A stretch of 64,000 nucleotides of DNA from Schoenoplectus triqueter (taxonomy: Eukaryota; Streptophyta; Magnoliopsida; Poales; Cyperaceae): contig CAXKVV010000062.1 in NCBI GenBank assembly GCA_964058805.1, positions 496,001 to 560,000 of the forward strand, written 5' to 3'. Position numbers and translations under genes: made by a program. Shown here one piece after another: positions 3,789 to 39,239 of this stretch. Positions within the stretch are counted from its first letter, which is position 1. Each line of letters begins with the position of its first letter. The notes under the pieces were generated by a model that worked only from the letters and a program-made list of their open reading frames with translations, searched no databases and had not been told where the DNA came from.

Positions 3789-3789
<1 letters not shown>

Positions 3790-3842: not shown

Positions 3843-3844
<2 letters not shown>

Positions 3845-11838: not shown

Positions 11839-11994
11839 TCAATTAAGTGACGCAAGGTTGATACCTTGGTTGATTAATGCAAGTGCGGATACACCAGAGA
11901 TCAAAACTGAAGAATCCCAGGTGGCAAACGCCCAAGCTGTACCTATAATTATTTGAGTAATAGCTCCAAGACCTTTCCATATGGCGCGTCTTTT
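11839..11994 (-). CDS. GTPase exon 21 (618-668), C-terminal membrane segment
   Basis: [20 protein letters not shown], then a second hydrophobic stretch [14 protein letters not shown], ending ASLN and TGA. A basic start followed by two short hydrophobic runs fits the ER hairpin of the family. The phase 0 entry agrees with exon 20, which supports this frame over the two alternatives. Confidence 0.78.
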   Translation of the reverse strand, partial: KRRAIWKGLGAITQIIIGTAWAFATWDSSVLISGVSALALINQGINLASLN

Positions 11995-14900
11995 CTGCAA
12001 TGAAATAAACAAAAGGTTATAGCATATAGTGATATCATGTAGACGGCTCTATACGCTCTGTCGCCTCTTCTACTCTATGTTATAATATAATTGGGCTACT
12101 TTCTGTGTGCTGGTTGATTAATTCTTGTATCTGTTAAGATTAAGAATAAGGACAAATTTAATAAAGACAGTACGTAATGGATGGAATGCATGCCCTATAT
12201 AATTACAACGAAGTAGTAATACTGAAAAATTTATGAAACTTCGAGAGACCAATGTTAAGGTTGAATAAATATTCCCAATTCAATGATATGTACGGAATTC
12301 CAACTATGTACATGCAAAAGGACTCAAGTCAACATGCACCGTTGTTGCCAACTACTTGCCATTTAATAAATTTCAAGCCTATCACAAGCAAAATAAATTT
12401 CCTAGCTAGACAACAAAATTAAATAACATATTTTTTATTCTCAAAGAACTATGCCAGCGGGGCAGAACTTATGAGGGACCGGAGGGGTTGCAGTCTCTCC
12501 AAAATTTTAGAAAACTAGCTATATACCCGCGCGTTGCAGCAGACTCTTTTATTTAAACAATAAAACATTATAAGATAAAAAATTGACATTTATCTAATAT
12601 TAAATTATAAATTCACCAAATTATAGAGAAAACCTATAATAAAGACTATATTTAATCTTGAATGAGATTTTTGCACAATATGAGTTAATGATTCATGATT
12701 TTTATGGCAAAAAAAGTAAATTATTCTAACATATATTATCACCATTAATTTCTTCCCAAATATGCACAAGGTTGCTAAATAAAAATAATAATATTATGGA
12801 AATAATAGTATATAAGGGAAATAAATGGAGAGAAAGAGGGGATCAATGGACGCGATCACATACGTTCGATCGATCAAAAATAAATATTATCCGTCTAATT
12901 GAGGGATAAAATGGGTATAATAAAAAATTACAATGACAAAAAATGGACTCTCCAATTCTTAGATGCTTTATATAATAGTATAGATATAGATTAGTGCATC
13001 TAGTAGAGGTTTAAGAAATTTCATGACAAATTATACTACATATAGTTTTATCAATCCCCCTTCTCCCCAAAAAAATATTAAGTCTTGATATCTTAGGTTT
13101 AGAGTTTGTCTAACATGCTTGTATTTTGACCCAAAATATTAATAAGTCGAATTTTAATTTTTCATGCTCGAAATTTTAATTTAATCAGTTCAATAAAATA
13201 TTTATATCATAATCTTTTAGAATACTAATTTTTACCATGTTTAAAATTATTTTACTATACTTAATGATTTTTAAAATATAACAAAAAAAAAATACTACGA
13301 TTTGTATGTAAAAAAAATCATTTTTTAAAAATCTATTTAAAACATAATAAAACTTAGTGTCCTACAATATTATGGTATAAATATTTTATTGAGGTACTTA
13401 AAATTAAAATTTTGAGTTTGAAATATAAATGAAAACATGCTAGACAAAATCCTCCAAAATATTTTTGTCCCTCATAATTTTGATTCAAACTCCATCACCA
13501 TATGCTAGCATCTCAATAAACTCAATTAAATATATATATATATATATATAGAAGGCGAACCTCGATTTTGTTTGCCTTTGCCTCCGCAAAATGGATGAGA
13601 TCAGTTATGAACTTCTCTCGGATTTTTTTAAGCTCCACTAGACAGTCATCATTTGGATACCATTTTAGATCTGAAAACAGTCGTGTGAAAGAAAGAAGAT
13701 ATTACATAGAGTGTAGAGTTGATTTCACAAAAAAAAAAAAAATTAATCTATGACATTTTATAAAAAAAACAAAAATATATATATATTTTTCACGAGACCA
13801 GTTTGGCTCTAAAAATGATAACTTGTATGCTTTTGCCAAAACGACCCAGAACGAAAACCATCTTTTTTTTCTCCGACTAAACCGTATCAATCGACTTCGG
13901 ATAAAAAACAGCCTTTTAGTCGACGGCGAGGAGACCGACTAAACCGTCACTCGACTCTTTTCTCTCGAGGCGAGGAGAGCTCACATCTACTGCCCGGACT
14001 CTCTCTCTCTCTCGACAACAAAAAGGCCTTGTATTGACCCCCCAACTTTGTCTCATGTCAGGGACACAACCTCATGTCTCGCCCCCGCACGCGACCGGAC
14101 CTCATATCTTCCACCCCATTTTCCATCTCTCGCTGACAAGGGGACTTCAAATCCGCCAACCATCTCTTTTAAGGAGAATAGTTTTAAACTGTGTCACTTT
14201 GAAGCGATCATCTACGTAAAGATATGCAAAAATGATTTTTTTATTGTCACATTGTATGTACATAATTTGATTTTCAAGGATAACAATTAAAGGCTAATTT
14301 ATCAGTTCAAGAAAGCAATGAAACTCGAGTTTGAGATGTTAAATCTCATAATGATAAGTTACTTTCTCGATCTTGAGATTAAGCAGGAGATATTGAGAAT
14401 ATTTGCATCTCAAGGAGCATACGGTCGGAGAATTCTTCAAAAGTTCGGTATAAAAGATTGCAATCCTGTGACAATACTAATGAAATTCAGTGTCAAGCTC
14501 TCAAAACTCAAAGGAGGAGATACTTGACTTGTACAAGATCCGACATTACAAAGTAATGATCAAATTGCAGGTATTTTTGTAAAGACTTTGTCAAAAATCA
14601 CTATTGGAGAACTATAAACAGATGCTCGGAATGATAAATCTGTGAAACTTGAGTTTAATGGAGGATGTTGGTGTAGCAAACTCTAAGTTTTGATCTCGAA
14701 GGAACAAGAGCTCGAAAACACAACCACCTCGACAACCTTGAACCTGAAGAAGTAGCAGCAACAAGGACGAGCACAAGGTAAAGATAAAACTCAAGATGAA
14801 CTAGAGCCTAACCACTCAGGAACTTTAGAGAGCTTGGGATGAACTCTTACCCCGATGATGAAAAAGAACACTTCTGACATCTGTCGCGTGTGTCAGAGAT

Positions 14901-17900
14901 AATTGATAAAAGAAACAGTGAAATTGACAGAAGGCTAGGCAATTAATATATTGTATAGTTAGGATTAGATTGATTGTATAGGTAGGTCAGTGCATTTATG
15001 ACACTGAGAGTATATACGTAGAGGAGTAGTGTAGCGTAGAAAAGACAGAGAACACTTTGTTAACACAATTAAGTTATAAAAAAACCTAAAAAATTATTTT
15101 TAATCTCATTTTAAATTCAATTCTTCGTTTGTTCTTTAGTAGTGAGTTGAGTGAAACCTATGACAAACACTAAGATAGTGACCTCGAATTCAAAGACTTT
15201 GAGATGTATACTCGAGACAGATATAACGGATCTATTAAAATGTGAGTTCAAAGAGTTTGAGACATATGTTGAGGATTCTTAAGAGAGTTGCTCTTTTAAT
15301 AAGTTTTGGATCAGATCTCCATGTAATACAAATGGATCTGTTAAAATGATGTTCTTGTTCGCTTGGTTGCTCCAATCAAACAACTGAATAAGATGACAAC
15401 TTTCACTTGTTCTTTATTCTTCTTTCTTCATATGTATGTTTATATTTGTTTGACTTCTATTTTAGAGCTAATTCTCTCTCTTACTGTCAGTTTACTTATT
15501 TTCTATATTCTCTATAATTTTCGATTTATATATAAAACAATCAATGTGTTATATCATGTTGCTAACTTTTTGATAAATTCTAGTTCTTTTTTATTTTTCG
15601 CAAGTTAATTTTCTGATAGCTCAGTTTAGTTGTCAGATGTCCCCATTAAATTGAACTTCATTGTTTTATCCTATAATTAGGTTCAATACTTGTACTGCCC
15701 GAACTGTGCAAGATTTAATATAGTAAATCAACTATAGTAAATCCCAACACAGAACACACTGTTTGTAATTTTCCATTGTAGCACAGCAGATAATTAATGT
15801 TTCCTCACCGCTAACACAATTTTGCATTGCCTACCTAGCATAGCGATCCGTTTCGTGCGGGACGGGATAGGTTAGATATAATGCATTCCTCACCAGCGCC
15901 ATACATATTTTTTTTTCTTGTAGTGATCTCAATTAAAAAGTTAGTAACAATTCAGATAAGTCAATGACAAAAGTGTGTGTGAAATTTTCTTAGAACAAGT
16001 ACCTGCAGCTGTAGGTGTTTGATCATCAAATCGTTTTAGGTAAGATTGAAGCACTTCAATTACAGTAGATTCATTCAGTTTCTTAAGCTTCTTCAATTCA
16101 GATGTGAGATTTGACGTTGCCCAGAAATGTATTTCACGTACCATGTAGTTCATCCTATCATAAAGTCCTTCTGAAAACCTCTGGGATCATGGAAAAAGAG
16201 AAATTAATGATGTCAATCTATGATAATCATATGGTATTTCTTTTCATCATGTTCCGCTCAAGATAAAAGAAAGACCTAACAACAACTTTTCGAAAAGGGG
16301 CCCGGAATAAAACTGAGGAATGCATATGCCTTAAAACATTGTTTAACTTATGTATTGGTTGCGTTTCAATTTTGGTATAATTTGAATATAATTTGATATT
16401 CTATAAAAAATCATCAAATTTACCCCGTTAAAATTGTCATATTATTTTGATTGTATTTGATGAAATATCAAATGATATTCAATATACACTAAAATTGAAA
16501 TACAATCAATCCATAAGTTCAATAATGTGTTTGTATTTTCTTTCTTTCTACTTTTAAGATTTTTTATAAATTTATATGAAGTTGGTTATCAGGGTTATCA
16601 AAAAAATATTTTCAAGGGATCGTGGCCTATTTAGTCTATGCATTCTTCATGTACTTTTTTAAATTAATTGATAAAATAAATATATTAGTTATTATTTCTT
16701 ACCATAAGTAAATTATATAAATTGAAATATCTTTATCCATTAAGTACTGACTTTCAATTATACAATAACGTTAACATCTCTAATTAAATTGTGAAATTTG
16801 AAATTATTTGAAGTTTAGCAACTAAAAATCTATCGGAAAGGAAAACTAATAATATATGCCATGAATGAATAATAAAAGTTTATAACTTATCAATCTTTCT
16901 TAAAAATTTAATTAACATACATGTTCATATAATACTATAAGATTTCCTAAGTTTGGATAGAAAAACTAATGGAGTGATCAAACATCAATATGAAGAGACT
17001 AAAAATAGATAAATAAAAGTTGAGTGATCAAATATAGATTTGAGACATAGTTAGTGACATTTCATGAAATTTATTCCAAGGAAAGTAATTATATGTACAA
17101 GATACTATAATGGATAGTGTTTCATATATGTATAAATTAAGAACAATCCAAAATATTTCCACACGATGTGTGTTATGTTTGCATTGCAGACATGATCAGT
17201 GTTGTGTTTAGTTTCTTCTCCCTTGATTTTCATGAATTTTATATTGCTTGTGGGGAGCTAGGACAGATATAGAACTCACCGATAGGAGTCTCATCTCTAG
17301 ATCGGCCTTCTCTGCATTCCTCCTAGCACTGTTAAATGATGCAGTTTCTTTTTCGTACCTATATATGTTTTATCACATCATTGAGACAGTAACAAGGTCT
17401 TGAAATGCCGGTCTACCAAGCATGTGAATCATGCTCGAACTAAATTTTATATATTTTTAATTTTTTTATTATTTTATAAAATAGCTAAAAAATCTCTTAA
17501 TTAAATTATTATGAGTCATTCAATAGGAGTCATTTTTTAACTATCTTAAAAAATATAAAATTTGATCTCTAATTAGATTTTCATTTGAAAAACACTTTGA
17601 CCGGTCGGATCAACCATTTAGACTTTGAAGACGGAGAAACGGTCCGTAGCACACGAGTCATCCGTGCTACGCGTAGCACCGTAACCAAACTCATATATAT
17701 ATATAGTCCGACTATGGTGTTTTGCAAAGAACAGAGGCGTTGTGTGCTTTGTACTCTATTTTTAATTTTAAGTCAGAAATAATCGATCTGAACCGTTCAA
17801 TCTAATTTCACATAAAAATCTATTAGTAAACTAAATTTTATATTTTTTAGAATTTTTCGCTATTTTTTCTGATGAGGAAAAAATGACTTGATATGAGAAT

Positions 17901-19674
17901 TCTAGTTCATCAAAAAATGACGGTTTTCAAATAAATTCCAAAAAATATAAAATTTGGTTTACTAATATATTTTGATATGGATATTAGATTGAGCGGTTTG
18001 AATCAATCACTTTTGACTTAAAATAAAAAATAGAGCGCAAAGCACACAAAACTTTTATGCTTTGCAAAGTACTAATGCCTAATTTTATATATATAGTTAT
18101 TCTACAGTTAGTCGCGAAATACAAAACGTTTTTATACTTCGCATCGTATCTTTCATTTTCGAATTCAAAATACTGATCCGACCGATCAAAGTGTTCTCCA
18201 TATTAAAATATATTAGGAGATCAAATTTTATATTTTTAGAATTTTTTTTCTATTTTTTTGAGGATTAGAAAATTATTCTTATTAGAAATCATAAATTTAA
18301 TGCATTTTCATTCACTCAAAAAAATAGTAAAAAAATTCTAAAAAATATATAACTTGGTCTAAAAATATATTTCAAGGATCGGTGTTTTAGCATAACTCTG
18401 TGACAAATTTTCATTATAATAATGAAGATAATATTAAGAATTTGGGTGCACCGATTCTTGCGGATCCCCAGATATTACAAGTGGCTTATTTGCTGAGGAA
18501 TGACAGAACGAGCAGGAGTCCCAATGTGCTCAATGTTTACGCGAAAATATTTTTATACATCTTCATATACTTAAAATTATCATAATAGGTCGTGAAACAA
18601 ACGAAAAATAAATTGTCACCATGTCATTTTTGTTACCGAATATATAGTAATATGTAATTGTCTATTCTTTTTATTAGAAAGAACTATTATTTTCCTTTTC
18701 TATCACCAGAGTTTATACAATTTGTATACAACATTATTCGAAAGGAAGGACTTAGTTGATCGAAGAAATTTACTTCAACGTATAAAATTGTAGATTAATG
18801 CATCTTTTTACCCTATTCATTTACCTGGTAAGTATTTCTATGCGAAGAACGGAAAAATCTTCGGTGAACTTATTCGCGGGAATATTAAAAAAATCATTCA
18901 ACCAAAATGCCTGCAATGCATAACGACTAGAAAATTATTATAGTATTCCGTACTTACTATAAGTTCTAAAAAGGCTAAGGGATAGAAGTAACAGAATCAT
19001 GAAGGGATATTTTTAACATACCTTTTCTTGCTCAAATGAATCTAGAATCTCTTTCTTAATCTCTTTACACTTGAATTCGGAGTGCACATCCTACACACAC
19101 ATTATGCATATAACTTATATGGTGAAATTAGTGATTGTACGTACTATATACTTATAAATTGGATAAAAGAAGAACAAAACTTTATAAGCTAGATAATAGT
19201 TAACAAGCGCCTCAAAGTACCACTAATTGGGTTACCGTTATTGATATCAGTTTTATTATTCAGGTTTAAAAAAATTAATATAATTGTGAAAAAAATTAAT
19301 TTAATTATTATTGATCAACTTAAAACTCATTTACAATAAGGTAAAAAAAACTCATTTATAATTGTGAATGATATCAGTTTTATTATCAGTCATAACATTA
19401 ATTAATTAAAACTCATTTACTTTTCTTTTTGGAGGAAAAAAATGAGGGCATATACTTTTATTATTCAGCGCGTGTACGGGTGCATTCATTTGACGATCGT
19501 CCCAGTTCATTGAAATGTTTGGATTTCCATTTTCCAATAAGGTAAAAAAACACCATCTTCCAAGGAATTGCAATTTAATTAATTAACTTCGAGCCCTCCA
19601 ACCAACAGACTATATTTCCTTGTAGGCTTAATAATAATTATTAATGCAGAAAAAACAACGAAGTTAACATTTCT

Positions 19675-19711
<37 letters not shown>

Positions 19712-21944
19712 GAACCTGAATAATGGTTGCCACTTCTTCCGCATGTTTTGTGAGGTTAGTGACAAACTTAGTCCGAATATTTGGGAGTTCAGCATCCTGA
19801 TATCGAAACCTTTGTAGATCTGAAAAATAATCACGCGGAAATCAGTGATATGGCCATAAAGATTAATTAGAATTTATTTCCATCAAATATGATTAAACTT
19901 GAAACCCTTGTAGATTTCATACAATATCTTTGTGTTCGATAAAATATACCAAATGACATTAAGTTATATTATATTTGAAACACGATAAATGTACAAGTTC
20001 AAATGGCATTTTGCATATATGAATATAAAAAAAAGAATCCGAAAATTGAAAAATTAACTGTACACTTTTTTTTGGATTTTTTCGGTTTTTTAGAATTGTT
20101 TGAAGCTGTTAATTTGCTAATGTTTTCAATGGATCCCTAGCTTATATGTTAAAACTTAACAATAAATTGAAATACAAAAATTTCTATACATTTAATCTCA
20201 CAGTTTTATGAATTTCTATATATAAAGTTATGATACAAAGAGTCACAGATTATAAAATATCTTTTATACTTCGTGTCATATCTCTCATTTTTCGAATTTA
20301 AAATACTGATACAACCGTTTTAGTATTCCACATATTAAAATATATTTGGATATCAAATTTTACATCTTTAGAAAAAAAATATTGTGTTTATTTGTAGAAA
20401 ATTATTATTATTGAAAATTATTAGATCAATGTAAAATTGTAAATTTTGAGCGATTCGGATCAATCATTTTAATTTGAAAAATAAAAAAATAGATCCGTAG
20501 CACGGACATGATCCGTACTATACACAACGCTATAATCCAACTCTCTCTCTCTCTGATAGGGGTTAGTGCTCGACACCATCAAATGGGCTCGAGTAGGCCC
20601 ATAAACCGAACTCGGGGCTTCTACAAGTTCATAATCCTTTTTACCTTATACAAAGACCCAACCTCGAGATCCTATTCTCGAGAGTCCTGCTTCGAAGAAC
20701 CAATCTCGAAGTTGGAGTCTTCAATGTCCTGTTGCGATATTTAATGCCATCAATGATTATACACGACGTGACATTAAGACACATGCACGACATTAAATGT
20801 CATAATTGTCGTCTGAGAGACGACGGCTGAAACGACCCAACGGTCATATGATGCAAGATGATGCCTATATAAGATCCGACCCTCGACACATGGAAGGAGG
20901 TTGAACAACAGAATGCTTACATACTCTTGTACACATACATTCTCGAGATAACTCATAGAGAAAAATAAAAATATGTCTTTACTCTCATTTCCATGATTGG
21001 TATTTCTACCTTACCGGAAATTATCCGTATCACTCTCCATATATATATTGACACACACACAACAATACGAGAATCAACGAAAAGATGTACACGTGAAAAA
21101 TAATAGGAAAGTTACCAGGTGTATAGTCATCGAACTCTTTCAGGTAGGGCTTTATAGCATTCTCTATTGCAGAATTATCCATTGCTGAATTATCCAGCTT
21201 AAAGAATTTTTCCAACTCACGACGGATTTCTGACCTTGCCGAGGAAAGTATTTTACTTGCCAAGTGGCGCATCCTAGCATGAAATCCCTTTTGGAACCTC
21301 TGCGAGAAAGGACAAGAGAAACTGAAGTTAGTTATTTACTTAATCCATTATATATAATCACCTCATTCTTTTTTGTTTTTGTTACGGCATGCTCGAGATA
21401 AAAAAAAAAAAACAAAGACAGCGACCTATAAAAAAAAAACTGCCCCGGCAAATAAACTGAGGATCAGGAAAATCCACATGCCCCCGAGGACTTGAGTTGC
21501 ATTGGAACATATATGAGGGATTTTTAACAATTGGTTATTTTGAAAATACTATTTTAAAAAATATATAAAAAATTATTTGAAGGCAGAGTAAGTTTATACA
21601 TATGTTATTCAACTTATAAATAGATAATTTCTCAAATTTCATATAATTTAGATACTGTTTGATAGTCTATCAAAAATAATTTATAATAATTATAATTTTA
21701 TGTTCTTTGAGGAACCATTAAATAATAGCTAAATTTAAGCATTATGAATCTATAAATTAAGGAATATATTGATAAATTATGTTTTATTTTTAAGATTCAT
21801 TTAGAATTTTATTGTCAAGGGATCGAAGTAATATCTTCATCAATCTCTCATTCGTCCATGTTTAAATCAAAATGATATGGTAGAACAATGACACTCCACT
21901 GCATTCTTTATATGTCAAGGGAACTGATCGCGCGGGCCCAATAA

Positions 21945-21996
<52 letters not shown>

Positions 21997-24900
21997 CTGT
22001 TTGCTATATATTAATTAGATTTGTTTAGCAAATGAAGTTACTCTGCACATTATGATCTCTAATGAAGGAATGCAGCAGCTGTGTTGTATGTATAAACTGT
22101 AAATAAAACATAATCAAAACGGAATTGCACCTGATATAGCGTAATTGATTTTGCTTGTGCTAATAGTTAATGTTATGTTTTTTTTTTCTTCCGACGCATG
22201 CGTATCCTCAATTAATTTTATAAATGAGCAGTAAAAACTGACAAAGAACTCACATGAAGAAGCTGCATCTCCAACTTGGTCCTCTTTCTGTCCCGTACGG
22301 AAGTTATAACTGATGTAGTTCCCACATCATACCTGTGTTAATAAGAATATCTTCAAATTTTTAATCAACAATATGGACCTACTTTAGCACAATAGTCTCT
22401 CTCTCTAGCTATTCAGTAACTTGTACAATTTGGATAACTATTTTCTATTGATATATAGTACTCTAAAGTCTAAATTAACGACATAAAATTGGCTATAATT
22501 TTAAAATACTTACTGTTCAAATTTCGAAATTTTTGTATCCCAACATAAACCCACATAGATCAAACAAAAATTATCATACAAACTTTATGAATTTTAGAAT
22601 TTTATTGAATTTTTGTGATTTTTTATACTTAATTTGTCCTAACTATAATAGAAAGACATCACGTATGTGTGTCAAAAAGGTTAATCGCTCGGAAATCACT
22701 AAAAATAGTTATAAATTCTAAAAGTAGTAATAAAATATTATCCAAGAAGTTTATTACACAAAAATTTTCTTGAGCTAATTAAATCAACATTGTGGATATG
22801 ATTTGTAATTTAAGCTAGCTATAAGCATTCCGATCCAAATTCTAGTGAAACCAAGTAATTAGACAATAGCTACAGATGATTTTTTTCTTTTATTTACTTG
22901 TATCCAAACTGAGGATAAATTTGCTGACTCTCAGCGCATTATATTTATAATTTTAAATTCTATTTATTTACCTGGTAAGTATTTGTTTCTGAAGTAAGAA
23001 AAATTCATCAGCGAACTCTTTTACAGGATTGCGTAAATCGATCAGCCAATTAACCTGCAAAGCATAGCAATTGGAATACTCTTTCGTTATTAATTAATTA
23101 ATGTTCTTAGTTAGTCAATGAGAAATAGAAACAATGAAAACATGGAGATAGTTTTACACGACCTTCTCTTGATCAAACGAGTCAAGTTCCTTTCTTATAA
23201 TTTTTGCACACGTGTATTTAGACTTTGCAACCTGCACATATAAATGAATCTAGAGGTGATTAAAATAAGATCAAACTGTGAGGAAGATAAAATGTAGCCA
23301 TTAATCAAAATTAAATATATAACAACCTTTTGATCGGCAGCTATAATCTTTTTATCGCAACAGATGTGATCCCATATATTTTTTGAAGAAATGGCAAAGG
23401 ACGTCGAAGTATATTCTGTTTGTTCTAGATTTTCTTTCGCAGCAAAAGCGGAAAAGTAATCTGAAGAACTTTTACACTGCAGACGTAGAAAAATAATTCA
23501 GCGAATTAAGTTAACAGATTCTGTTTCAAATTTTATAATTTTAGTTAACATTCAGTAGTAAGATTATTAAAATTTTATATAACATACAATGATTATAATA
23601 ATAGTCTTTAAATCTATCAGTTGAAAAATATTTTTTTGATTTTTAAGATTTTTGAGTTGCATTGTCAAAATTGTCTAAATAATCCTTTGTAATATGTATA
23701 GACAGAGTTATGGTATGGTGCTACGCATAGCACGAATCATTCCCCGTTCTATGAGTCATTTTTTCATTTTCAAAATTTAAAAGGTTAATCCAAGCACTCA
23801 GTATGATTTCCATCTAGAGTGTCATATGTAAATCATATTGAACAGTTTGGATCAATCATTTATACTTTGTAATGAAGAAATAAATCCTAATATAGATGTG
23901 ATTCGTACTATATATAGTACATTGATTGATCTGAACCGCTCACAATATTGTTCATATAAAAATTTTATATTTTAGAATTATTTTACTATTTTTTTAGAAA
24001 GCTACAAAATTACTTCTTTTGAAGGACTCATAATAATAAATTCAGTGATTTTCTAACTATCCAAAAATAATAAAAATATATAAAATTAGTCTACAACTAG
24101 CTTTTTATATGAAAATTATTTTCGGTGATATAAATCAACTATTTAGACTTTTAAAAATGAAAAAAACATTCTATAGAACGGAGGTAATTAATGTTGTACA
24201 TGCAAAGCAGATAGGCCAACTCAAATATTTATGGTGCTTCGTGAAGCACCGTGAAAATGGTAATTCGTACTCAAATATCTAATTTTAAACTACATATGAC
24301 CGATTTGTATCACTTAATTTAATCTCCATATGAAAATGTATTATCAAGCCAAATTTTATATTTTTTGAAATTGATTTACAATTTTTTCGGATGGAAAGAA
24401 AATCAATATTTTTGGATAAACTAAAATTCTCAGATAAAGTCATTTTTCTCCCCATTTGAAAAAATAGCAAACAAATTTCAAAAAATGTATAATTTAATTT
24501 GCTAATATATTTTTATATGAAGATTAGATTGAACGGTTCAGATTGATCATATCTAGTTTGAAATTAGATACTTTGGTCTAAAGTACCACATCCATAGTGC
24601 TTAGCACCATAACATAGTTATATATAGAGAGAGAGTGTGTGTGAAACTATAGTGCTTTGCGAAGCACAAAATCTCTCGTGCTTCACATCTATATCTCGAA
24701 TTTAAAAGTTCAAATATAAAATCCAAACGTTGAATATGATCCTCATATTAAAATATCTTTGGAGATCAATTTTTTTTGCTATTTTTAGATGGGGACAAAG
24801 TTTGTCAATCTAATGATTTCTGCACCATCCAAAACTAATCATTTTTTGCTCATCTAAAAAATAGCAATAATTTAAAAATATATATAATTTGATCTCCAAA

Positions 24901-25016
24901 TATATTTAAATATAAAGATCATATTCAACGGTTTGATCGGTCATTTGAATTTTTAAATTTGAGATACAGATGTGAAGTACGGTAGATTTTATACTTCGCA
25001 AAACAATATATCCTCG

Positions 25017-25096
<80 letters not shown>

Positions 25097-26175
25097 TAAT
25101 GCTATGGTGCTTCGCGTAGCAAAAAATCTTTTGTACTTCGCGTCCGTATCTCGAATTTAAAAGTTCAAACGGCCGATCCAAACCGTTGAACATCATCTTC
25201 ATATTGAAATATCCTTGGAGAACAAATTTTATATTTTTTTTGAATTTTTTTGATATTTTTTAGATGGGTACAAAGTTTGTTAATCTAAAAATTTCTGCAC
25301 CATCCAAAACAAGCGACTTTGTACCCATCTAAAAAATATCAAAAAAATTCAAAAAAATATAAAATTTGATCTCTAAGGATATTTCAATATAAAGATGATG
25401 CTCAATGGTTTGGATCGGCCGTTTGAACTTTTAAATTCGAGATACGGACGCGAAGCATAATTTTTTTTTACTTCGCGAAGTACCATAGCATTACTCTATA
25501 TATATATATATATATATATATATGGATGGCAATGGGCTAGGTCGGGCCGGGTTTATATCAAATTTGGAGCCCGACCCTTACCTCCGGGCCTAAAATTGAT
25601 AACCTGGCTCGCCTATGATGCTTGACGGGCCTACCCGCCCGTACCCGTCCCGACCCGACTTTATCAATGATATTTTATTGCTAGACTTTTTAATTAAATT
25701 ATTACATAATTAATTAATAATTTCTTTGGTTAATGATTTCTCTCTTCTTAATATTATATCTTTAGAGATTGATTATTGTATTTAAACTAAAATGTTATTA
25801 AACATTTGTACTATCATAGTATAAGTTATTTTTTAAGTCTAAAAATTATTAAAAATTTCCACAAACTCAAGTACTCAATTTATAAATTGTAATATTTAAT
25901 TAAAAGAATTAATTTAAATGAACATTCTATTAGTTAAATTATTAATTTTATCCAATTTGATAAGTTTCTTATATACAATTATACAATTATACATAACACA
26001 CATAAATATATATTACATATTATCGATATTACGGGTCGGGTGGACATGCCTCACCCTAAACCCGTACCCGCCCGGCCCGTACTTTGACTTGGCCTGGCCC
26101 TACCCGTTTGACCTCTTGGCCGGGTGGGCTGGCCGTGTCCGGCTAGGTCGGATGGGTCATAGGCTTTATTGCTAT

Positions 26176-26224
<49 letters not shown>

Positions 26225-27038: not shown

Positions 27039-27080
<42 letters not shown>

Positions 27081-30000
27081 GAAAAAACCGATTTAAAAAT
27101 TATTAGAGGCTGTTTTTGAAAAAAAACGCTTTTAAAGAATTGAAACGGGTTTTTAAATTAATTTTTAGAGACGTTTTTTTTAAGAATCCGGTTTTAAAAT
27201 GGTTGAGTTTAGAATGTTAGAGCCGGTTGTTTTATAAAATCGATTCTAAATTTTAGAAACCGAATATGGGCCTCCGTATATGACTCAATTTTAGGATCGG
27301 TTTTATAGTAAAATCGGTTTTAAAAATTTTAACAAAATTTACAATCATGCCATTAAAATCTTTTAGCAGATCTAGTCTATAAAACTGATTTTAAATAGGT
27401 GTTTCTAATTTTTTTTTTGCTGGTAGTGATATATATATTACCTACGTACTTTGGCATATATATGATCATGTTTGATGTTGATAATTAATAATATCATAAT
27501 ACTCTTGATTCATGATTAGCAAATAAAGTAAAAAAACGAAAGAAACGATATCTCAAGTGTTACACATAAGACATGGATAATTTGGGTATTGAACTTTTGT
27601 TATATGAGTAAAGATCAATTAATTGCACGTACGCTAGCTGGCTTGTAATTATTTAATTTGTACGTACCTTCTGCTCGAATTCCCGTTCAAATCCACGCTT
27701 ATTAGAAGGAAAGTCCCACACGATGAACTGCATGCATATACACATATAGATCAGTGTTTTTTTTTTTTCCTCAAAATATGCCACGAGAAAAAATGTTTTG
27801 TTCAACAAAAATGTAATTAAAATACTAATTTTCCCTCAATAAAAAAAAGTTTTCCTTCCAGTGAAATCCTTCTTTCGACAAAATTAACTTGTCTGATACG
27901 AGGGATACTATTTATTATTTTATTGTATACCGTCATCTTATAATTATGAAATGCATGCGTGGTTTACCTGGAAGTAATCGTCCATGGTCTTGTTGTCTGG
28001 AGCTGGATGCACTTTATTTTCCCATATCTGTAAGAGTTACACACACACATACACATACATATATATATATATATATATTTATTTATTTATTATCCTAGAA
28101 GCACCAATCTATCCATTCTCTTTACTTGATGACATATCTAATTATTTCTGAATTTTAACTTACTTATTTAAATAATTTTTTTATATCAAAATTTTATGGG
28201 ATAAATTTTTTTTTTCAGTTTTAGAGTTTCATATATATAGTCTGCTATGTTTCCAAAGTTCTGTGTCCGGAATGTTGATACATGTAGGTTGAAATATTCT
28301 TCATGTCAATAACCTATTACCAACTTTTACTATTATTATCATGTAATTATTGTATTTAATAATTTTTAAAAGATGACATTATTGACATAAAAAAATTGAT
28401 ATATTTTTTATTATTTTCATAGTCATCTTTCAAAATCATTAGAAATGAGAAATAAAATTATTTAAGTATTTTAAATATTGGTAACATAAAAATCTATTGA
28501 TTTGAAGAATTTAAAAAAAAATACCTGAATCAATATTTTAGAAACAAAATTTTGAAATTTAACATGTAAACATTTCGACCTGATCGAAAAGGTTATGGAT
28601 GCACCCCAGCCGAACTAGATAATTAAATAATATATTACGTACCGTTTTCATGTCCCACAGTAGCTGCTCCTTGATGACCTCGACTGGAGTCTAGATGATT
28701 AAAAAAAAAGTGAACATTCCGTCATCCGGGAATTTAAAGTGTGTATGTTCCATATTTAAAGGTGTCAATCATTTATCTACTTTTTATGTATTAACTATTA
28801 TTATTTTTAATTATAATGAACAATTATTAATTACAAATATATATGATTGTCAAATGTTGAATTTTAAAATTTTTATTTACAAAAAAATATATAAAATACT
28901 TTAACTTTAATCAGTAATAATTACACCTTTTATTTAATAATTGTATTATTATACTTAAGAAATCCTATTTATTGTTCTATTAGTGGATCAACATTGAGGT
29001 TAATTCTTCAAGGTCTACCTCATAATCATAGTCACGCACTACAATGATAATTGTAGTTTTTGTTGCTTCAATCTTTAACCTTCCCTGCAATTGCAATATG
29101 AAGTCAGTGAGAGAAAGTCAAGGCTTTGTGGATAGTTAATTTTCATTCTTTTTTAAAATTTTCTTTTGAAATAATCCAATATTATCTACATTTTTTCCTC
29201 TAAATAAACATAATTACAGTTTGACGCACAAAACTGGTAAAAGTATTTAAAACTGGAATAAACTGAGCATACTTCGGATAAAATTATCACCTGTACAATG
29301 TGGTGATAAACAAAACCTTATGAGTTATGAAATCACGAACCTTAAACTGTCACTCTGATTTGACAAAATAATCAACTATTCAATTCGAGACATATCCAAG
29401 AAATTCTAGGGTGTCAAAACTTTAACCCAATCTGATTCAATTCGAATTTGATCTTTAAATTGACTCGAAAATAAATAAATTGGTATGGATAAAGATTTAT
29501 TGATCCATTGCGGATCAGGTCGGATATATATAAAAATTAACGAATTAATTTATAATTAATGTTAACTGATATATGATTAAATCTTATTTATACACTAACT
29601 ATATCAATTAACATTAATTAGAAATTAATTAATATTTAATTTACTTAAAAAAATTAAAAATAATAAATGAATACATAATTATTTTATATGGGCCAGATCA
29701 GATGACCTGTGACCCGTTTGGGTCGAGTCAGGTCAAAGAAATTATGACCAATTTTAAACAATTCGGATTGAATCAGATTAAGAAAAATAATAAAGTATTG
29801 ATGATCCGACCCGACCGCATTCATTGACACTCTTTTCATTTCTTTCATCGGTGACTTCTGTGTTGGGGTGTCAAAAATTAATTTGACCCGGATCAAAATG
29901 ATCTGAGAATAAATGGGTTCGGATATTTATTAAAATTTTTTGATCTATTATGGATCAGATCGGATATGGATCGACCCGACCAAACCAATTTAATTATGTT

Positions 30001-33000
30001 TTTTATGTTGTGATTTCATGCTAATCAAATATAATATATATACTAATTAAAATTAATTATTTATTAAATAATAATAAATTACTTACAATATACAAAAATG
30101 ATGAACATATACTTAATTAGTTTATTTTGATCAGATTGACCTGTACTACATTTGAGCTAGATCGCATCAAACAAAAATTTTAACCTGATTTTAAACGAAT
30201 CGTATCAAATAGAAATAGATCGATTAAAAAATAATAAAATAATAATGATTCGAATCAAATCTAATGGGACGTAACCCCCCAATTAACACCCCTACTTTTA
30301 AGTCATCATTAGTAACTTTCCGGCCCTAAAAGGAAAGAATGGCAATCCCCCCTTTTGGATAGACGACGCCGCCTCAGCGATTTAGGATTGTTGGACGTTG
30401 GACATCTGATCGTACCACCGTGCTTTGATCTTACGATTTCCGTGCATCTGAATATTAACTATTATATCCTATCTATTTTACTTTATACAATGGATATTTA
30501 GATATAGGTTCCGCATATGGATTGCATCTTCTTCGTCGCTGCTCCAATTCTTATTTGGTTTCCTCACAGATACTCTCTTTTGACTTGGGATTGAACAAGG
30601 TCCATCTAGAATCGCCAGTCTAAGTCGGTCTCCTTGCTTGTCTCTCTCCTTAATTTCTTCGTTACACGCAAATTTAATTTGCCTCTCTCTCTCACCGTTT
30701 GCATCGATATAGATCTAATAGTTTCCATTGCTTTTGAAAAACGAAAATATTTTGCGTCCATCAATCATTGCTTTTGAAAAACGAAAATATTTTGTGTCCA
30801 CCAGTAGATTGTAAACAAGTTGAGTCGAATTGAGTTGGATCAAGTTCGTGCTCAGTTCATTAGTTTAAGGAGTAGAGCTGAGTTGGCTCACTAATTACTT
30901 CTGAACTAAAATTTTAGTTGGAGATCGACCCGTTAAATTAACGAGTTAATCAAAATGGCTCGTTAAGGCTCATTAATAATATTTCTTATAATATTTTATA
31001 CTAAAATTTATATAAAAATTATTAAAATAACTATTAAAATATATTTCATAAATTTTAATATAATAATTAAAGTATATATCATACTATAAACTAGTTACTA
31101 TACTAAAAATTATTATAATAAAAATATATAAATAATAAATATTAATAGTTAACAGAGTTAAACGATCTGAGTCAGCACAAGCTCAAGCTTGACTCATTAA
31201 CTCAATGAGTTTAACTCGTAAATGAATTGGTTTATTAAGTTAACAAGTTTATGTAATATTTGGGAATGAGAAAACCTGTACATGTATGCACATTAATTTC
31301 TTGCTCCGCGCGAGGAGCCATTCGATGACAAACAAAAAGATATAAAAAAAAAAGAAAAAAGAAAAAGAGAGAGAGAGAGAGAGAGAGCCAATCGTACGTG
31401 ATGTGATTTGTAGTTTTGTTTTGTTTAATAACTCATAACTTGTATATATTTAATGGCGAAAATAACAGTGTACGTACCTGAAAAATTAATTCAATGAGCT
31501 CAGCATTTGCGGCATCCGAGCGACCAATGTCATGAAACCACCTACAAATATATAATATGCACTGTTGTATCACATATATTAAATCATCTATATCTGGACA
31601 AATTAAGATCCACTTTTTTGGTTTTCCTTTAATATATCTTTTCTAAATATATAACTAATTAAATCCATGCAGAAAAGTATTAAATGAACTAACATGTTTA
31701 GTAGCAGAACGTCCGAAACAACCAATGCAAATAGTGCGGTTTGCTTTTCAAATTTTGTTTCACCCTACAAGTAAAACAAATAAAATTATCAAAAGATGTA
31801 CAAGCAGAAATACGATATGCGCGCGATTGCGTCTGCAATAAACGAAACAATATACTTTCGTTTATAAGAAACTAGCTACAGTAATTTTGTTTTGGGTACA
31901 TCATTCAACAAGATAAATTATCAATTTAACATTGCAATCAGTTCAATATTTATTTTATATGAAAAACATAATTATGCATTGCATAACAAATGTTATTGAA
32001 AAAAAAATAAGGTCTAAATAATAATTTCGAGTCATCACCATAATATTTCAAAAAGCAATAGCGCTATAGCCAGCGGAAGCTATCATATAAATTAGACTTT
32101 CATAGAGTATTAAATAATAACAAATTGATTATGGACTTATAAATTTATAGTTAATCAGTAAAAACTCAAGTTTGTTATTCATAATATCACTGATATCGTA
32201 AAATTTAAATTATTTTTCTATTCAAAATAATCTAAATAACCATAAATCATGTCATTTTCTTTATTAAGATAAATAATAAAATAATATTATATAAGTTTGG
32301 ATCTCTCAAGTTATACAAAATTAATTTTAAACAAAAATAATAAACTATATCGAATAACGTATTATTTTATTGTTGCATGCTATACGCTATTGCGGCCCAC
32401 TATTACCCTATAGTGATCATAGTTTGAAATAGCTAGCGCAAAGTTAGCATATAACATAGCTTTTGATATTGGAAAATACTATAATGCGCTATTTAGAACC
32501 TTAGTTATTGGGACATATGGATATAGCTAGGGTTAGATTTAGGAAGGGATGAAATATTCTTGGAGAGAGAGTAGAAGGAAATCAAGAGAAGAGATCAAAA
32601 CGGAGAGTAATACTTTTTATTCTTGTTTTTCCAGTTTCTTTATTTAATCATGAATATTTTTTATTTCTCCTCACCATAAGAGAGAGTAGTTATGTATCTA
32701 GTGTTAGACATTTTAGACTCGATACTTGGTATGTAATTAATCTTATCCTTTATATTTTTATCTATTATTTCAATGAATTACATTGTGGTTAAATTAAACT
32801 TGTGCTTGATTAAATTGTTTAATATTAGATTAGTAATCCACTTAGGATTGAAAATTCTAAATAGAATATATTTGTAAGATGCAAATTAATAGTAGGATGA
32901 TGACAAACTGAGATAATTATTCATATTACTAACCATAATCTGATAATACTCAGATCGAAAAGCAGTATCTATTTCTTGGTGAAATACTCAACCATGATTT

Positions 33001-36000
33001 TAGTCTAGATGGGATTTTCTCTAAATTTTTAGAGTAACTAGTAAGAAGTACCTAACCATGAATAACCAATCTTTAGTAGTTTTAGAAGTACCCAGCACTT
33101 AAGGGCTTGAATCACTGGAGCGAAGTACATAATTGTAAAGTCTAAATTGATTTCAGTACTATATTAAATCCTAATCGGATAATTAATATTAAATTAGACG
33201 ATAACCTCACATACCTAAGGGCAAAAATATAAACTAAGATTAATGCTCCAATTGACAGTAAAGCCGAATCCCTAAGTTTTCGCCAATTTGTGTTAAGTCA
33301 AAATTATGTTCAAGTCGATCTTTAGTTTAGAATTAATTTAGTTCGAATATGAAATCAAATTTACTGGTTATCTTAGGAAAATTATCAACATCTAATACTT
33401 TAAACCAGTCCTTGTAGGGTAGACACTAGTACACAATAGATCATACGCTGATGGCTATCTACTGTATGTATTTAGGTTTAAATTATTAGTTTGTAAAATT
33501 CACATTTGATAATTAGTGTCATTTTTTCCTAAAAATCCGACATTATTATCACTTTTGTGTCGATTTTTGTTGTCTAATAGTATGATCGATGCTATTTGTT
33601 TATATTAGTACAAGATTTTTTTTCATTACATCAGTATCTTATTATGAAACAAAATCTTGTACTGATATAAACAAATAGCATCGATCGTACTTTTAGAGAA
33701 AAAAATCAACACAAAAGTGATAATAATGTCGGATTTAAAAAATCTAAAAAATATTTTTTTATGAAGATATTCTTAAGTTAATTGGCTGTGTTTCAAATTC
33801 ATATTATTTGGATGTCATTTGAAACTCCATCAAAAGTCATCAAAATTATAATATAACTTTAACGGTTTAACTTTAGTGATCTTTGATGGAATATCAAATG
33901 ACACTCAAATTATATAAAATTTAATACACGATCAATTAATTAGCTTCTGAATATATTTATAAATATTTTTATAAATTTATATAAAATTAATTGTTCAATA
34001 GGACTAAAATAAATATTGTCGAAGGATTTCCACCTTTTTTTATCTAATTTGCCTAGAAAACAATGAGCGTCTGTTCTTTTTTCGATACAGTGCGCTTGGA
34101 CTATCATTAGTTGTGGCAATCAATAATTTTTTTTTAAGTAACAAGTAGAGCCTGTTAGTTGTATTAGAGCAAAGAAGATGGCAATCAATTTAATTGGGCC
34201 TGACTGGTTTGGTTGACGAAGAATTTCGGGACAAATGTTGAGTTGGATTGGGTCTCGGATCTCAAGTCAATCTGGATCGGGCCGAATTGAATTTTCCTTA
34301 GTTTGACTTCTAAAAATATCGGGTTGGAACTTGGAACTGCCGATCTAGCTCAATTATGGAATATGATATCTTCTGATGGGGTTTACTTTTACTTGAATTT
34401 TTTGTTCATTCTACTCCATTTTCTATTAAAACTTTAGTCAATATTTATTCTTTGCACAGAAAGATGCTATATGAGATTACAAATAAATTATTAGTATTTT
34501 CTTGTGTGCATATAATAAGTGTAAATATTTAATGGACAGGAATATTTATTAAAGCATCATGCTCATTTTAGTGGTAATTAGTGTAGCTGTGATTATTTGA
34601 TTTTCATGTTATTAATTCAATCGCCTAAACGCTAATTATTTGATATGTTGCACTATAATATGAAGTCAATATTTTCACCAGAATACGAAGTCAATATTTT
34701 CACCTAGAACAACTTATTAATCAAATATGATATCTTCTGATGGAGTCTACTTTTATTTGAATTTATTGTTTGTTCTGCTCCATTTCCTATTATTTATTCT
34801 TTGCACAGAAAGATGCTATATCATGAGATTACAAAAAAATTGTTAGTAAGAAGAAAGCTACCTCTGCTCTTTCCTTTCCGTCACAACCTTCGACATCCAT
34901 AATAATCATGTTAGGATTGATACATTTAGCTATCCAGATCCCTTTTGTGGTTTGCTTCCTACATATTGATGCATTCAATATGAAATATTAATCACCTAGT
35001 TACTTCGCTAAAAGGCTAAAAAGGCAGTTGTAATTATTTAAAAATCAAGGTAGACAATTTGAGATGGAAGTAAAATGGGAGAAGAAAATATCATACGAAG
35101 AAAGAAACACATTTCAGTATGCATAAATGTAAAGATTAATATATTAGAATAAGTAATTCTAGTATGAGTTTTAACATCTCCAAATTAAGTTTGATGAACT
35201 TAAAATCCAAAGCACTTCGATAAACTTAACTCAAAGGTATATTTTTATATTTTCGGATTTGATTTGTGTTGCTTAATAAATTCTTTAAAACAAAATCTCA
35301 TGGATACAAAAAAAATATTTTTCATTTTTTTGAATATTTGTTTCTAATTTATAAATTACCTATATTTGTATGCAAGTATTCAGTATTTTATTATTATTTT
35401 AGAATCATGTTCAAAAATTGAAAACAAATAATTAAAATATTAACAAAGAAAATTTGTGTATTCGATGAGATTATGAGATAAATAATTTATTATGTATAAA
35501 TTAAATTTAAAGATGTTAAAAAATATTTTTGAGCTAAATTCACCAAGAGCTCAGTGAGCTTGAACTCATAGCAGCTTCACTCAATATTTTCTTTATGTGA
35601 GCGAACTTGAAACAGATACAAACCAATTTTGGTTCCTAGAAGTGCTTAAACTGCAAGTATTGTATATTAATAAACTTATTACCTTCCTTTAGTAGCATTT
35701 AGCACGTCGAACTTGGTCTTAAATAACTTGTTTAGCAAATAGCTTTTACCTAGAATTGAAGATGTGAAAATCAAAACTATCAGCAGTTTAATTTGCTCAT
35801 CAAATTAATATAATTTTCAAAGGAAAAGCTTCTTGAGGGAGCAAAAGTTCCACAACTAATTCCTATTTATTTTGAATATCTTAATAATCTTCAGGAATGA
35901 GAGCTTATTTAATCATATATTTCAAACATGACTAGGTGACAGATGTACAAAACTTGGAATCGGTATCGGAATCGGAATGTTGTCCATGGAATCAGAAATA

Positions 36001-39000: not shown

Positions 39001-39239
39001 CATTGATTTTTCAATATCTAGCAATTTCAGCAGACAAGTTAGTACTTTAAAAGAAGAAAGAATATATGGGGGGTTGTGGAAACCAATACATGGATAGAGA
39101 TTTATTAACTACCGCTGCTTTGTGGACCAATGATGGAGATCACAGTGTAGTTCTCCATGTGCTTGACGAAACTCGCAGTTTCACTTGAGAACTTGCCATC
39201 TCCGCTTATCATCTGTATCTTCCTGTGAAAAACCTCCAT
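11839..39239 (-). CDS. RHD3/Sey1-like dynamin-family GTPase, 21 exons
   Basis: Predicted ER-membrane GTPase of the RHD3/Sey1/atlastin family, whose members tether and fuse ER tubules in a GTP-dependent way. All 20 introns are GT-AG. Coding exons sum to 2007 nt, giving 668 residues with no internal stop. The ATG at 39239 is preceded in frame by TAA. The G domain shows GPQSSGKS at 38-45, QTTKG at 67-71, DVEG at 86-89, [10 protein letters not shown] at 102-111, WFHDIG at 122-127 and VRD at 158-160. Residues 250-617 form a helical stalk with an internally repeated exon pattern. Residues 618-668 contain a hydrophobic stretch resembling a membrane hairpin. From memory RHD3 has about 800 residues; the shortfall falls between stalk and membrane part. 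Introns are packed with transposons. Expression is untested. It may be a divergent functional paralog or a recently decaying copy. Confidence 0.85.
11995..13560. other. GTPase intron 20 with an unclassified repeat
   Basis: No further exon found by reading the minus strand. The stretch from about 12518 (CTATATACCCGCGCGTTGC) to about 12990 (TATATAATAGTATAGATATAG) resembles a widespread plant repeat, class uncertain. A (TA)n run lies at about 13530-13549. Confidence 0.4.
13561..13670 (-). CDS. GTPase exon 20 (581-617), start of a third repeat
   Basis: [20 protein letters not shown] and on to EAKANKIE. Same entry and exit phase as exon 15. Exons matching 16-19 do not follow. Confidence 0.82.
14207..15067 (+). 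mobile_element. Truncated copia 3' end with LTR, in intron 19
   Basis: Degenerate reverse transcriptase (LYVHNLIF, corresponding to [17 protein letters not shown]), RNase H tail remnants (GIFVKTLSK, compare DIFTKPLPK) and a TTTAATGGAGGA polypurine tract. An LTR starting TGTTGGTGTAGC at 14666 follows. The LTR end is uncertain, perhaps near 15067. The active-site YVDD is YVHN here. A different family from copia-1 and copia-2. Confidence 0.6.
16003..16180 (-). CDS. GTPase exon 19 (522-580), stalk repeat 2
   Basis: [19 protein letters not shown] and on to [12 protein letters not shown]. Paralog of exon 14, two codons shorter, same exit phase. Confidence 0.87.
16345..16515. mobile_element. Hairpin MITE in intron 18
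   Basis: Inverted repeat: GTTTCAATTTTGGTATAATT pairs with the region ending TAAAATTGAAATACAATC. A similar hairpin sits at about 33783-33935. Confidence 0.55.
17280..17358 (-). CDS. GTPase exon 18 (495-521), stalk repeat 2
   Basis: [19 protein letters not shown] then DLEMRLLS. Paralog of exon 13, same 79 bp and the same GTGAGTT donor. Confidence 0.87.
17585..18400. mobile_element. Composite hairpin repeats in intron 17
   Basis: Several inverted modules with terminal GTGCTACGCGTAGCAC- or CTTTGCAAAG-like ends and internal GATCGGT...AAATATAAAATTTGGT arms. They belong to the same family as the hairpins at 23700-25493. An open frame across them is not a gene. Confidence 0.5.
18825..18910 (-). CDS. 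GTPase exon 17 (467-494), stalk repeat 2
   Basis: [19 protein letters not shown] and on to RIEILTR. Paralog of exon 12 with one extra codon. Confidence 0.87.
19022..19090 (-). CDS. GTPase exon 16 (444-466), stalk repeat 2
   Basis: [19 protein letters not shown] then EQEK. Paralog of exon 11, with equal length of 69 bp. Confidence 0.87.
19680..19709. repeat. (TA)n microsatellite beside exon 15
   Basis: About 15 TA units ending seven bases before the exon 15 donor boundary at 19716. Confidence 0.9.
19716..19819 (-). CDS. GTPase exon 15 (409-443), stalk
   Basis: [19 protein letters not shown] and on to ATIIQ. Opens the second repeat; exon 20 is its parallel. Confidence 0.86.
20220..20545. mobile_element. 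Hairpin repeat in intron 14
   Basis: Member of the same hairpin family as 17585-18400: TAAAGTTATGATACAAAGAG on the left and TATACACAACGCTATAATCC on the right, with AT-rich arms carrying the GATC-containing family motif. Confidence 0.4.
20554..21032. mobile_element. Solo LTR with 5-bp target duplication, in intron 14
   Basis: Begins TGATAGGGGTTAGTGC and ends TTATCCGTATCA, 479 bp, with inverted TGATA/TATCA termini. The flanks are ctctc at 20549-20553 and ctctc at 21033-21037. A CTATATAAG box lies near 20865. Because the left flank is itself a CT repeat, the duplication is less decisive than it looks. No internal domain is present. Confidence 0.7.
21116..21299 (-). CDS. GTPase exon 14 (348-408), stalk repeat 1
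   Basis: Begins [18 protein letters not shown] and ends [14 protein letters not shown]. 184 bp, parallel to exon 19. Confidence 0.88.
21949..21993. repeat. (TA)n microsatellite in intron 13
   Basis: About 22 TA units. Confidence 0.9.
22254..22332 (-). CDS. GTPase exon 13 (321-347), stalk repeat 1
   Basis: [20 protein letters not shown] then LEMQLLH. 79 bp, identical in length and phase to exon 18. Confidence 0.87.
22972..23054 (-). CDS. GTPase exon 12 (294-320), stalk repeat 1
   Basis: [19 protein letters not shown] and on to QKQILTR. Parallels exon 17; both end in the same TTACCAG/GTAAAT junction. Confidence 0.88.
23163..23231 (-). CDS. GTPase exon 11 (271-293), stalk repeat 1
   Basis: [19 protein letters not shown] then DQEK. 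69 bp, the same length and phase as exon 16, which ends ILDSFEQEK. Confidence 0.88.
23327..23476 (-). CDS. GTPase exon 10 (221-270)
   Basis: Linker into the stalk. [13 protein letters not shown] corresponds to SFSAQEIWKVI in RHD3. Confidence 0.85.
23704..24613. mobile_element. Two adjacent hairpin repeats in intron 9
   Basis: One starts at 23704 (GGTGCTACGCATAGCAC). The second starts at 24230 (ATGGTGCTTCGTGAAGCACC) and ends near 24613 (AGTGCTTAGCACCATAAC). Arms contain AAATTTTATATTTTTT and its complement with a poorly paired centre. Confidence 0.5.
24645..25010. mobile_element. Hairpin MITE in intron 9
   Basis: Left end ACTATAGTGCTTTGCGAAGC pairs with a right end reading ATACTTCGCAAAACAATA. 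It carries the same internal sequence as the element at 25097-25493. Confidence 0.6.
25097..25493. mobile_element. Near-perfect hairpin MITE in intron 9
   Basis: Begins TAATGCTATGGTGCTTCGCG and ends CGCGAAGTACCATAGCATTA, with arms of about 190 bp. (TA)n and (GA)n runs lie before it and (TA)n after it, so insertion into TA repeats is likely. Confidence 0.75.
25524..26179. mobile_element. hAT-like MITE rich in GGGTCGGG, in intron 9
   Basis: Left end GGATGGCAATGGGCTAGGTC; right end, reversed, GGATAGCAATAAAGCC. GC-rich CCCGACCCG ends enclose an AT-rich core. This is a common plant repeat style, usually assigned to hAT derivatives. Both ends sit in (TA)n, so no target duplication can be read. Confidence 0.6.
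26225..26640. mobile_element. Hairpin MITE in intron 9
   Basis: Left GACGTTTGCATTTCAGC...CATATGCAAACAGATCAAAA pairs with right TTTTTGATCCGTTTGCATAT...GAAATACAAATATTTTC. Arms are about 190 bp. Confidence 0.65.
26660..27045. mobile_element. Hairpin MITE in intron 9
   Basis: Left AAAGATACCGTGAGTTTAAC pairs with right GTTAAACTCACTGTATATTT. The inner arms contain ATTTAATGAGAATGATAAAT and its complement. Confidence 0.6.
27080..27428 (-). mobile_element. CACTA-derived MITE or fragment in intron 9
   Basis: Read on the minus strand it starts CACTACCAGCAAAAAA and continues ATTAGAAACACCTATTTAAA. This closely follows the 5' end of CACTA-2 (CACTACCAGAAAA, then ATTTAGAAACGCCTATTTAG). ATCGGTTTT-type subterminal repeats fill the body. 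The opposite terminus is not clear. Confidence 0.7.
27668..27727 (-). CDS. GTPase exon 9 (201-220)
   Basis: [20 protein letters not shown], the end of the G domain. Exactly 20 codons between a GCAG acceptor and a GTACGT donor. Confidence 0.85.
27968..28027 (-). CDS. GTPase exon 8 (181-200)
   Basis: [20 protein letters not shown], parallel to [20 protein letters not shown] in RHD3. Confidence 0.87.
28643..28690 (-). CDS. GTPase exon 7 (165-180)
   Basis: [16 protein letters not shown], a 48-bp in-phase exon matching TPLENLEPVLREDI of the family. Confidence 0.85.
29019..29084 (-). CDS. GTPase exon 6 (143-164)
   Basis: [14 protein letters not shown] supplies the G4 RD motif that reads the guanine base in atlastin-type GTPases. 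Confidence 0.88.
29405..30295. mobile_element. Two adjacent hAT-like MITEs in intron 5
   Basis: About 29405-29832 (GGTGTCAAAAC to ATTCATTGACACTC) and about 29876-30295 (GGTGTCAAAAATTAATTTG to CAATTAACACCCCTAC). Both have GATCCGACCCGAC-type subterminal sequence and AT-rich cores, and belong to the same family as 36970-37372. Confidence 0.5.
30295..31477. other. Rest of intron 5
   Basis: Contains a direct repeat (CATTGCTTTTGAAAAACGAA at about 30727 and 30768), a degenerate repeat rich in GAGTTAACTCG-like words (30810-31240) and an (AG)n run near 31366-31388. No exon seen. Confidence 0.45.
31478..31541 (-). CDS. GTPase exon 5 (121-142)
   Basis: [19 protein letters not shown], matching MWCHDIGREQAANKPLL of RHD3. 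Confidence 0.92.
31694..31764 (-). CDS. GTPase exon 4 (98-120)
   Basis: [20 protein letters not shown], almost identical to the family signature FEKQSALFALAVSD. Confidence 0.93.
32500..33490 (+). repeat. Gypsy LTR-like relic in intron 3
   Basis: Shares ordered blocks with 40240-41030 (for example GATTAGTAATCC...AGGATTGAAAATTC and GGTTTAAATTATTAG), the sequence upstream of the gypsy gag relic. No coding part is present here. Similarity was judged by eye. Confidence 0.45.
33520..33755. mobile_element. Hairpin MITE in intron 3
   Basis: AATCCGACATTATTATCACT on the left pairs with AGTGATAATAATGTCGGATT on the right. Arms are about 100 bp, including ATCGATGCTATTTGTTTATA and its complement. Confidence 0.75.
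34362..34856. repeat. Tandem segmental duplication beside exon 3
   Basis: ATATGATATCTTCTGATGG starts at 34362 and about 34727. TTATTCTTTGCACAGAAAGA starts at about 34447 and 34795. The second copy lies directly against the 3' end of exon 3. Confidence 0.8.
34862..34958 (-). CDS. GTPase exon 3 (65-97)
   Basis: Contains the switch I threonines (KQTTKGIW) and the G3 motif [13 protein letters not shown]. Confidence 0.92.
35683..35749 (-). CDS. GTPase exon 2 (43-64)
   Basis: Completes the P-loop Lys and Ser and continues [19 protein letters not shown], matching the STLLNHLFGT region of the family. Phase 1 in, phase 2 out. Confidence 0.9.
36520..36920. mobile_element. MULE-type hairpin MITE in intron 1
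   Basis: Ends GGCTCTAAATCTG and, reversed, GGGTCCAAATCTG. Long arms include GGAGAAAAAAGAGGATCCTC, and the centre lies near 36720. It is flanked by the 9-bp duplication cacgaatat at 36511-36519 and 36921-36929. A 9-bp duplication with long inverted repeats is typical of Mutator-like elements. Confidence 0.8.
36965..37690. mobile_element. hAT-like GGGTCGGG repeats in intron 1
   Basis: About 36970-37372 runs from AGGGTTTTGACTCTACCCG to CCCGACCCATTGATACCCCT. A second degenerate copy runs about 37440-37690. GC-rich ends surround AT-rich cores; family assignment is by style only. Confidence 0.5.
37691..39112. other. Remainder of intron 1
   Basis: No exon or named element. A plus-strand open frame at 38753-39097 shows no family motif and ends just beside exon 1; I treat it as chance. 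Confidence 0.4.
39113..39239 (-). CDS. GTPase exon 1 (residues 1-42)
   Basis: Starts [17 protein letters not shown] and ends inside the P-loop (GPQSSG). The donor is G/GTAGTT. ISGDG matches the LIDGDG opening of RHD3. The usable ATG lies just upstream of a TTTTTCACAG tract that could be mistaken for an acceptor. Confidence 0.85.

What the first reader, a model, noticed from the sequence alone, without database searches (positions are those of the whole stretch)
11839..39239. Uninterrupted 21-exon RHD3/Sey1-like GTPase gene hidden in transposon-filled introns
Seen: 20 GT-AG introns, consistent phases, total 2007 nt, all GTPase motifs intact (GPQSSGKS, QTTKG, DVEG, VRD), and an in-frame TAA just before the ATG. 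Known: RHD3/Sey1/atlastin proteins shape and fuse ER tubules. Inferred: a real, selected gene, because chance would not leave 21 matching junctions. Exons average under 100 bp in 27 kb, so ORF-based annotation would miss it.
Basis: partly seen in the sequence, partly recalled or inferred. Interest (0 to 1): 0.8.

Follow-up and report, generated by a model that had tools for sequence, protein, structure and literature searches.

The report
RHD3-like GTPase with doubled stalk
A 27-kb plant gene split into 21 small exons really is there; it belongs to a little-described, fast-changing branch of the proteins that fuse membranes of the endoplasmic reticulum, sits in a repeated gene array, and has had its stalk region duplicated.

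Summary
On the minus strand, 21 exons (39239 to 11839), all GT-AG and phase-consistent, join to 2007 nt and 668 aa. Twelve of 13 comparable introns sit where this genome's canonical RHD3 has them. A second copy 457 kb away keeps the 21 exons; exons differ at 15 of 2007 sites, introns at 501 of 24300, with 0 versus 77 gaps. The gene is real and constrained.

Exons 16-20 are a phase-preserving duplicate of exons 11-15: the helical stalk is doubled. The gene sits in a recently amplified array of related genes and fragments. It belongs to a clade whose named members here are all Poales, outside canonical plant RHD3. Against middle-aged paralogs omega is about 1, with no stops where about 6 are expected: fast protein evolution with an open frame.

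Function is inferred: a GTP-driven ER-membrane tether or fusogen with a rebuilt stalk. It has almost no C-terminal tail, so full RHD3 activity is doubtful. No expression data for this gene.

The parts
39113..39239 (-). exon 1 (ATG; GPQSSG of the P-loop)
   Evidence: in-frame TGA TAA before the ATG
35683..35749 (-). exon 2 (KSYLLNKLF)
34862..34958 (-). exon 3 (QTTKG switch I, DVEG)
31694..31764 (-). exon 4
31478..31541 (-). exon 5
29019..29084 (-). exon 6 (VVRD, G4)
28643..28690 (-). exon 7
27968..28027 (-). exon 8
27668..27727 (-). exon 9
23327..23476 (-). exon 10 (end of GTPase domain)
23163..23231 (-). exon 11, stalk module 1
22972..23054 (-). exon 12, stalk module 1
22254..22332 (-). exon 13, stalk module 1
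21116..21299 (-). exon 14, stalk module 1
19716..19819 (-). exon 15, stalk module 1
19022..19090 (-). exon 16, stalk module 2 (duplicate of exon 11)
18825..18910 (-). exon 17, stalk module 2 (duplicate of exon 12)
17280..17358 (-). exon 18, stalk module 2 (duplicate of exon 13)
16003..16180 (-). exon 19, stalk module 2 (duplicate of exon 14)
13561..13670 (-). exon 20, stalk module 2 (duplicate of exon 15)
11839..11994 (-). exon 21: two hydrophobic stretches, very short tail, stop TGA
25105..25470 (.). palindromic 366-bp repeat (MITE-like) in intron 9, 41 other places at 95-98% identity among the candidates scored
14291..14524 (+). Copia reverse-transcriptase fragment (RVT_2) in intron 19

Best explanation
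A functional nuclear plant gene for a divergent RHD3/Sey1-type large GTPase: GTPase domain (exons 1-10), a helical stalk made of two tandem copies of a five-exon module (exons 11-15 and 16-20), and a probably membrane-anchoring C-terminus (exon 21). It is one of a recently and repeatedly amplified set of paralogs. Shown: exon structure, intact frame and motifs, exon constraint, module duplication, clade. Inferred: GTP-dependent dimerisation of the G domains across two membranes, the stalks swinging to draw ER membranes together as in Sey1p and atlastin. The duplication would restore most of the reach of a stalk that one-module relatives (Z, Typha) have only in its near half. The tiny C-terminal tail suggests tethering, or regulation of canonical RHD3 by hetero-dimerisation, rather than full stand-alone fusion.
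Confidence: 0.72

Rival explanations
1. Two units merged: a gene with exons 1-15 (its membrane exon lost) followed by a 5'-truncated second gene (exons 16-21); the 668-aa protein would be an artefact of joining them.
For: Exons 16-20 duplicate exons 11-15; in the same array X shows only exons 1-14 and c only exons 12-21, so broken halves exist here.
Against: Only 625 bp lie between exons 15 and 16; exon 16 opens in phase 0 behind an acceptor; both modules stay open with conserved splice sites in Y2 and c; within Y1 only one membrane exon was matched, behind module 2 (one query only); symmetric phase-0 block.
Confidence: 0.17
2. Recently dead copy: an array duplicated with its TEs, frames open only because the copies are young.
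Against: Even the youngest pair shows exon constraint (15 of 2007 versus 501 of 24300; 0 versus 77 gaps); no stops where about 6 are expected (P = 0.003 and 0.001); all 20 introns keep GT-AG.
Confidence: 0.1
3. Diversifying gene family in an arms race (for example against viruses that build replication sites on ER), evolving by module duplication and amino-acid change. This is compatible with the best explanation and adds a selective cause.
For: Omega at or above 1 with open frames (Y1-c module 2 1.81, p = 0.08; Y2-c 2.01, p = 0.047); repeated recent duplication; RHD3 is recruited by turnip mosaic virus 6K2 (passage read in PMC8071230).
Against: 22 comparisons were run, so p = 0.047 does not survive correction; no site test; no host-virus data for this clade; synonymous divergence Y1-c differs between modules (0.31 and 0.11), so they may have different histories, which disturbs such ratios.
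Confidence: 0.2

Closest known systems
Plant RHD3 (ROOT HAIR DEFECTIVE 3) and RL1/RL2
   Same: GTPase domain family, intron positions and phases (12 of 13), overall order GTPase - helices - hydrophobic end
   Different: Separate clade, 100/97; 668 versus about 800 aa; stalk of two duplicated modules; almost no C-terminal tail
Sey1p (PDB 5ca8, 5ca9)
   Same: Best solved relative by sequence (2.1e-35, residues 29-383) and, for the Typha relative, by fold
   Different: The sequence match stops in module 1; for the far half of the Sey1 stalk there is no match, a second copy of the near half stands there (inference)
Poales RHD3-like proteins (Typha 473-477 aa, Carex rostrata 407 aa isoform X4, Ananas 589-682 aa)
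   Same: Same clade; Typha has GTPase, one module, hydrophobic end
   Different: No double module in those seen; Ananas and the 629-aa Typha protein carry a long charged, coiled-coil-like end instead (read by eye)
Metazoan atlastins
   Same: Likely mode of action; short-stalk layout resembles Z and Typha

Membership tests
RHD3/Sey1 GTPases | RHD3-type GTPase domain (PF05879) above the curated cut-off | tested here: met
   195.1 bits, cut-off 42.4
RHD3/Sey1 GTPases | G1-G4 motifs intact | tested here: met
   GPQSSGKS, QTTKG, DVEG, VVRD in the model; core letters of each invariant in the 7 rows of A1
RHD3/Sey1 GTPases | Sey1_3HB domain (PF20428) above the cut-off | tested here: not met
   20.5 bits versus 24; of four clade members scanned, P0005 (44) and P0007 (24.7) pass, P0002 (20.3) and P0003 (not listed) do not
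RHD3/Sey1 GTPases | Intron positions of plant RHD3 | tested here: met
   12 of 13 canonical introns within one column and same phase
RHD3/Sey1 GTPases | Two closely spaced transmembrane segments | tested here: inconclusive
   Two hydrophobic stretches at 625-642 and 646-663, Kyte-Doolittle peaks 1.46 and 1.57 only; a G-domain stretch reaches 2.0
RHD3/Sey1 GTPases | Cytosolic C-terminal tail with amphipathic helix | tested here: not met
   About 5 residues after the second stretch; feature as stated in passages of PMC9804665
RHD3/Sey1 GTPases | Falls inside the canonical plant RHD3 clade | tested here: not met
   12-row clade 100/97, sister to 20 other plant rows; again 100/97 with other rows; closeness supports kinship, not orthology
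RHD3/Sey1 GTPases | Mediates ER fusion / restores the ER network in a mutant | not testable with these tools
   needs experiment
Guanylate-binding proteins (GBP) | GBP N-terminal domain as the best match | tested here: not met
   PF02263 30.4 bits (over its 21.1 cut-off) but far below RHD3_GTPase 195.1

The most novel reading that the evidence does not exclude
A plant lineage shortened an ER fusogen to about half its stalk, then lengthened it again by tandem duplication of a five-exon cassette, and now runs an amplified, quickly diversifying array of such GTPases, possibly decoys or antagonists in a conflict over ER membranes. In that array X (exons 1-14) and its downstream neighbour c (exons 12-21) may be one gene of about 70 kb with alternative stalk cassettes.
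Probability: 0.15. Interest if true: 0.75.

Novelty: new variant of a known kind. Interest (0 to 1): 0.45.

Why it matters
RHD3/Sey1 proteins are mostly thought of as few and conserved (recalled; Salix and Populus hits show that paralogs occur elsewhere too). A clade with modular stalks (one copy, two copies, or a coiled-coil-like end) that changes this fast is a natural experiment on what stalk length does in membrane fusion. It also shows how a gene with exons averaging 96 nt in 27 kb of repeat-rich DNA can escape ORF-based annotation.

Full report
OBSERVATION. The window is C60:496001-560000 of an 82-Mb, 2086-contig assembly. A splice aligner written here, led by the canonical RHD3 protein read from contig C889 of the same assembly, found a chain of RHD3-like exons on the minus strand, good to about exon 14 and weak beyond.

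IT IS NOT CHANCE. Pfam gives RHD3_GTPase 195.1 bits against a cut-off of 42.4. Of 13 introns in the comparable part of the C889 RHD3, 10 fall in the same alignment column with the same phase in the window gene, 2 more within one column with the same phase; the remaining one is where C889 lacks an exon. So this is a DNA-level descendant of an RHD3-type gene, not a retrocopy.

THE STALK IS DOUBLED. Exons 16-20 repeat exons 11-15 one by one (43.5, 42.9, 37.0, 43.9 and 42.9% identity) with the same phase series; the two modules score 280 in local alignment against at most 63 in 500 shuffles. Module 2 of Y1 and of c form one group (100/100), and Z has one module with a membrane-type exon after it. 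The duplication therefore probably arose in this lineage after Z split off (support 86/85 for that split, so not certain). One wrinkle: c's module 1 groups with the second modules (89/90), not with Y1's module 1. The block begins and ends in phase 0, so it could be inserted without breaking the frame.

HOW IT LIKELY WORKS. From the family (passages of PMC9804665 and PMC3866526): G domains dimerise across membranes on GTP, helical bundles come together, two membrane segments anchor the protein, and an amphipathic tail helps fusion. The window protein keeps the motor, has about 347 stalk residues in two modules, a borderline hydrophobic hairpin and almost no tail. I therefore favour an ER tether or modulator of canonical RHD3 over a full stand-alone fusogen; this step is inference.

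LIMITS. No expression data for this gene; a relative (P0002) looks like a spliced RNA contig (inferred). Copies beyond the fetched stretches were seen only as matches. Contrary results are gathered in Tried and rejected.

Noticed in passing
L009:2799-3612 (C889:19799-20612): The canonical RHD3 of this assembly lacks the exon with QTTKG and DxxG; the stretch between its neighbours shows no such exon, and skipping it breaks the frame. Broken gene or assembly loss.
   Followed up: partly
C60: X at 486.0-461.1 kb and 250.1-225.7 kb; c at 428-418 kb and 199-185 kb: X matches only exons 1-14, c only exons 12-21 (exon 12 seen in c1 only), and c's exon 14 lies about 33 and 29 kb beyond X's exon 14 in the two units; c1 keeps an acceptor before its exon 12. 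Possibly one long gene with doubled exons 12-14.
   Followed up: partly
[not shown]
   Followed up: partly
window 41659-41765 minus: Plant C/D-box snoRNA snoR71 (Rfam RF00097, 42.6 bits, cut-off 40).
   Followed up: no
window 56496-58791 plus: CACTA-type transposase frames (tnp2, PF02992, and DUF4218; CACTA is recalled).
   Followed up: no
window 1461-10544 and 53164-54723 plus: Two Copia-type retroelement regions, interrupted frames; described as they stand.
   Followed up: no
window 25105-25470: Palindromic 366-bp repeat with 41 other places at 95-98% identity among the 40 of 1248 candidate stretches scored: a recently spread MITE-like family.
   Followed up: partly
P0075 (Quercus suber, 909 aa): A canonical RHD3-like protein in the database with an apparent internal repeat of its stalk region; could be real or a gene-model artefact.
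   Followed up: no
P0001, P0004 (Salix dunnii, 974 and 1131 aa): Database proteins with two RHD3-type GTPase domains each, beside many Salix and Populus paralogs in the same listing: another expanded RHD3-like group, or fused gene models.
   Followed up: partly
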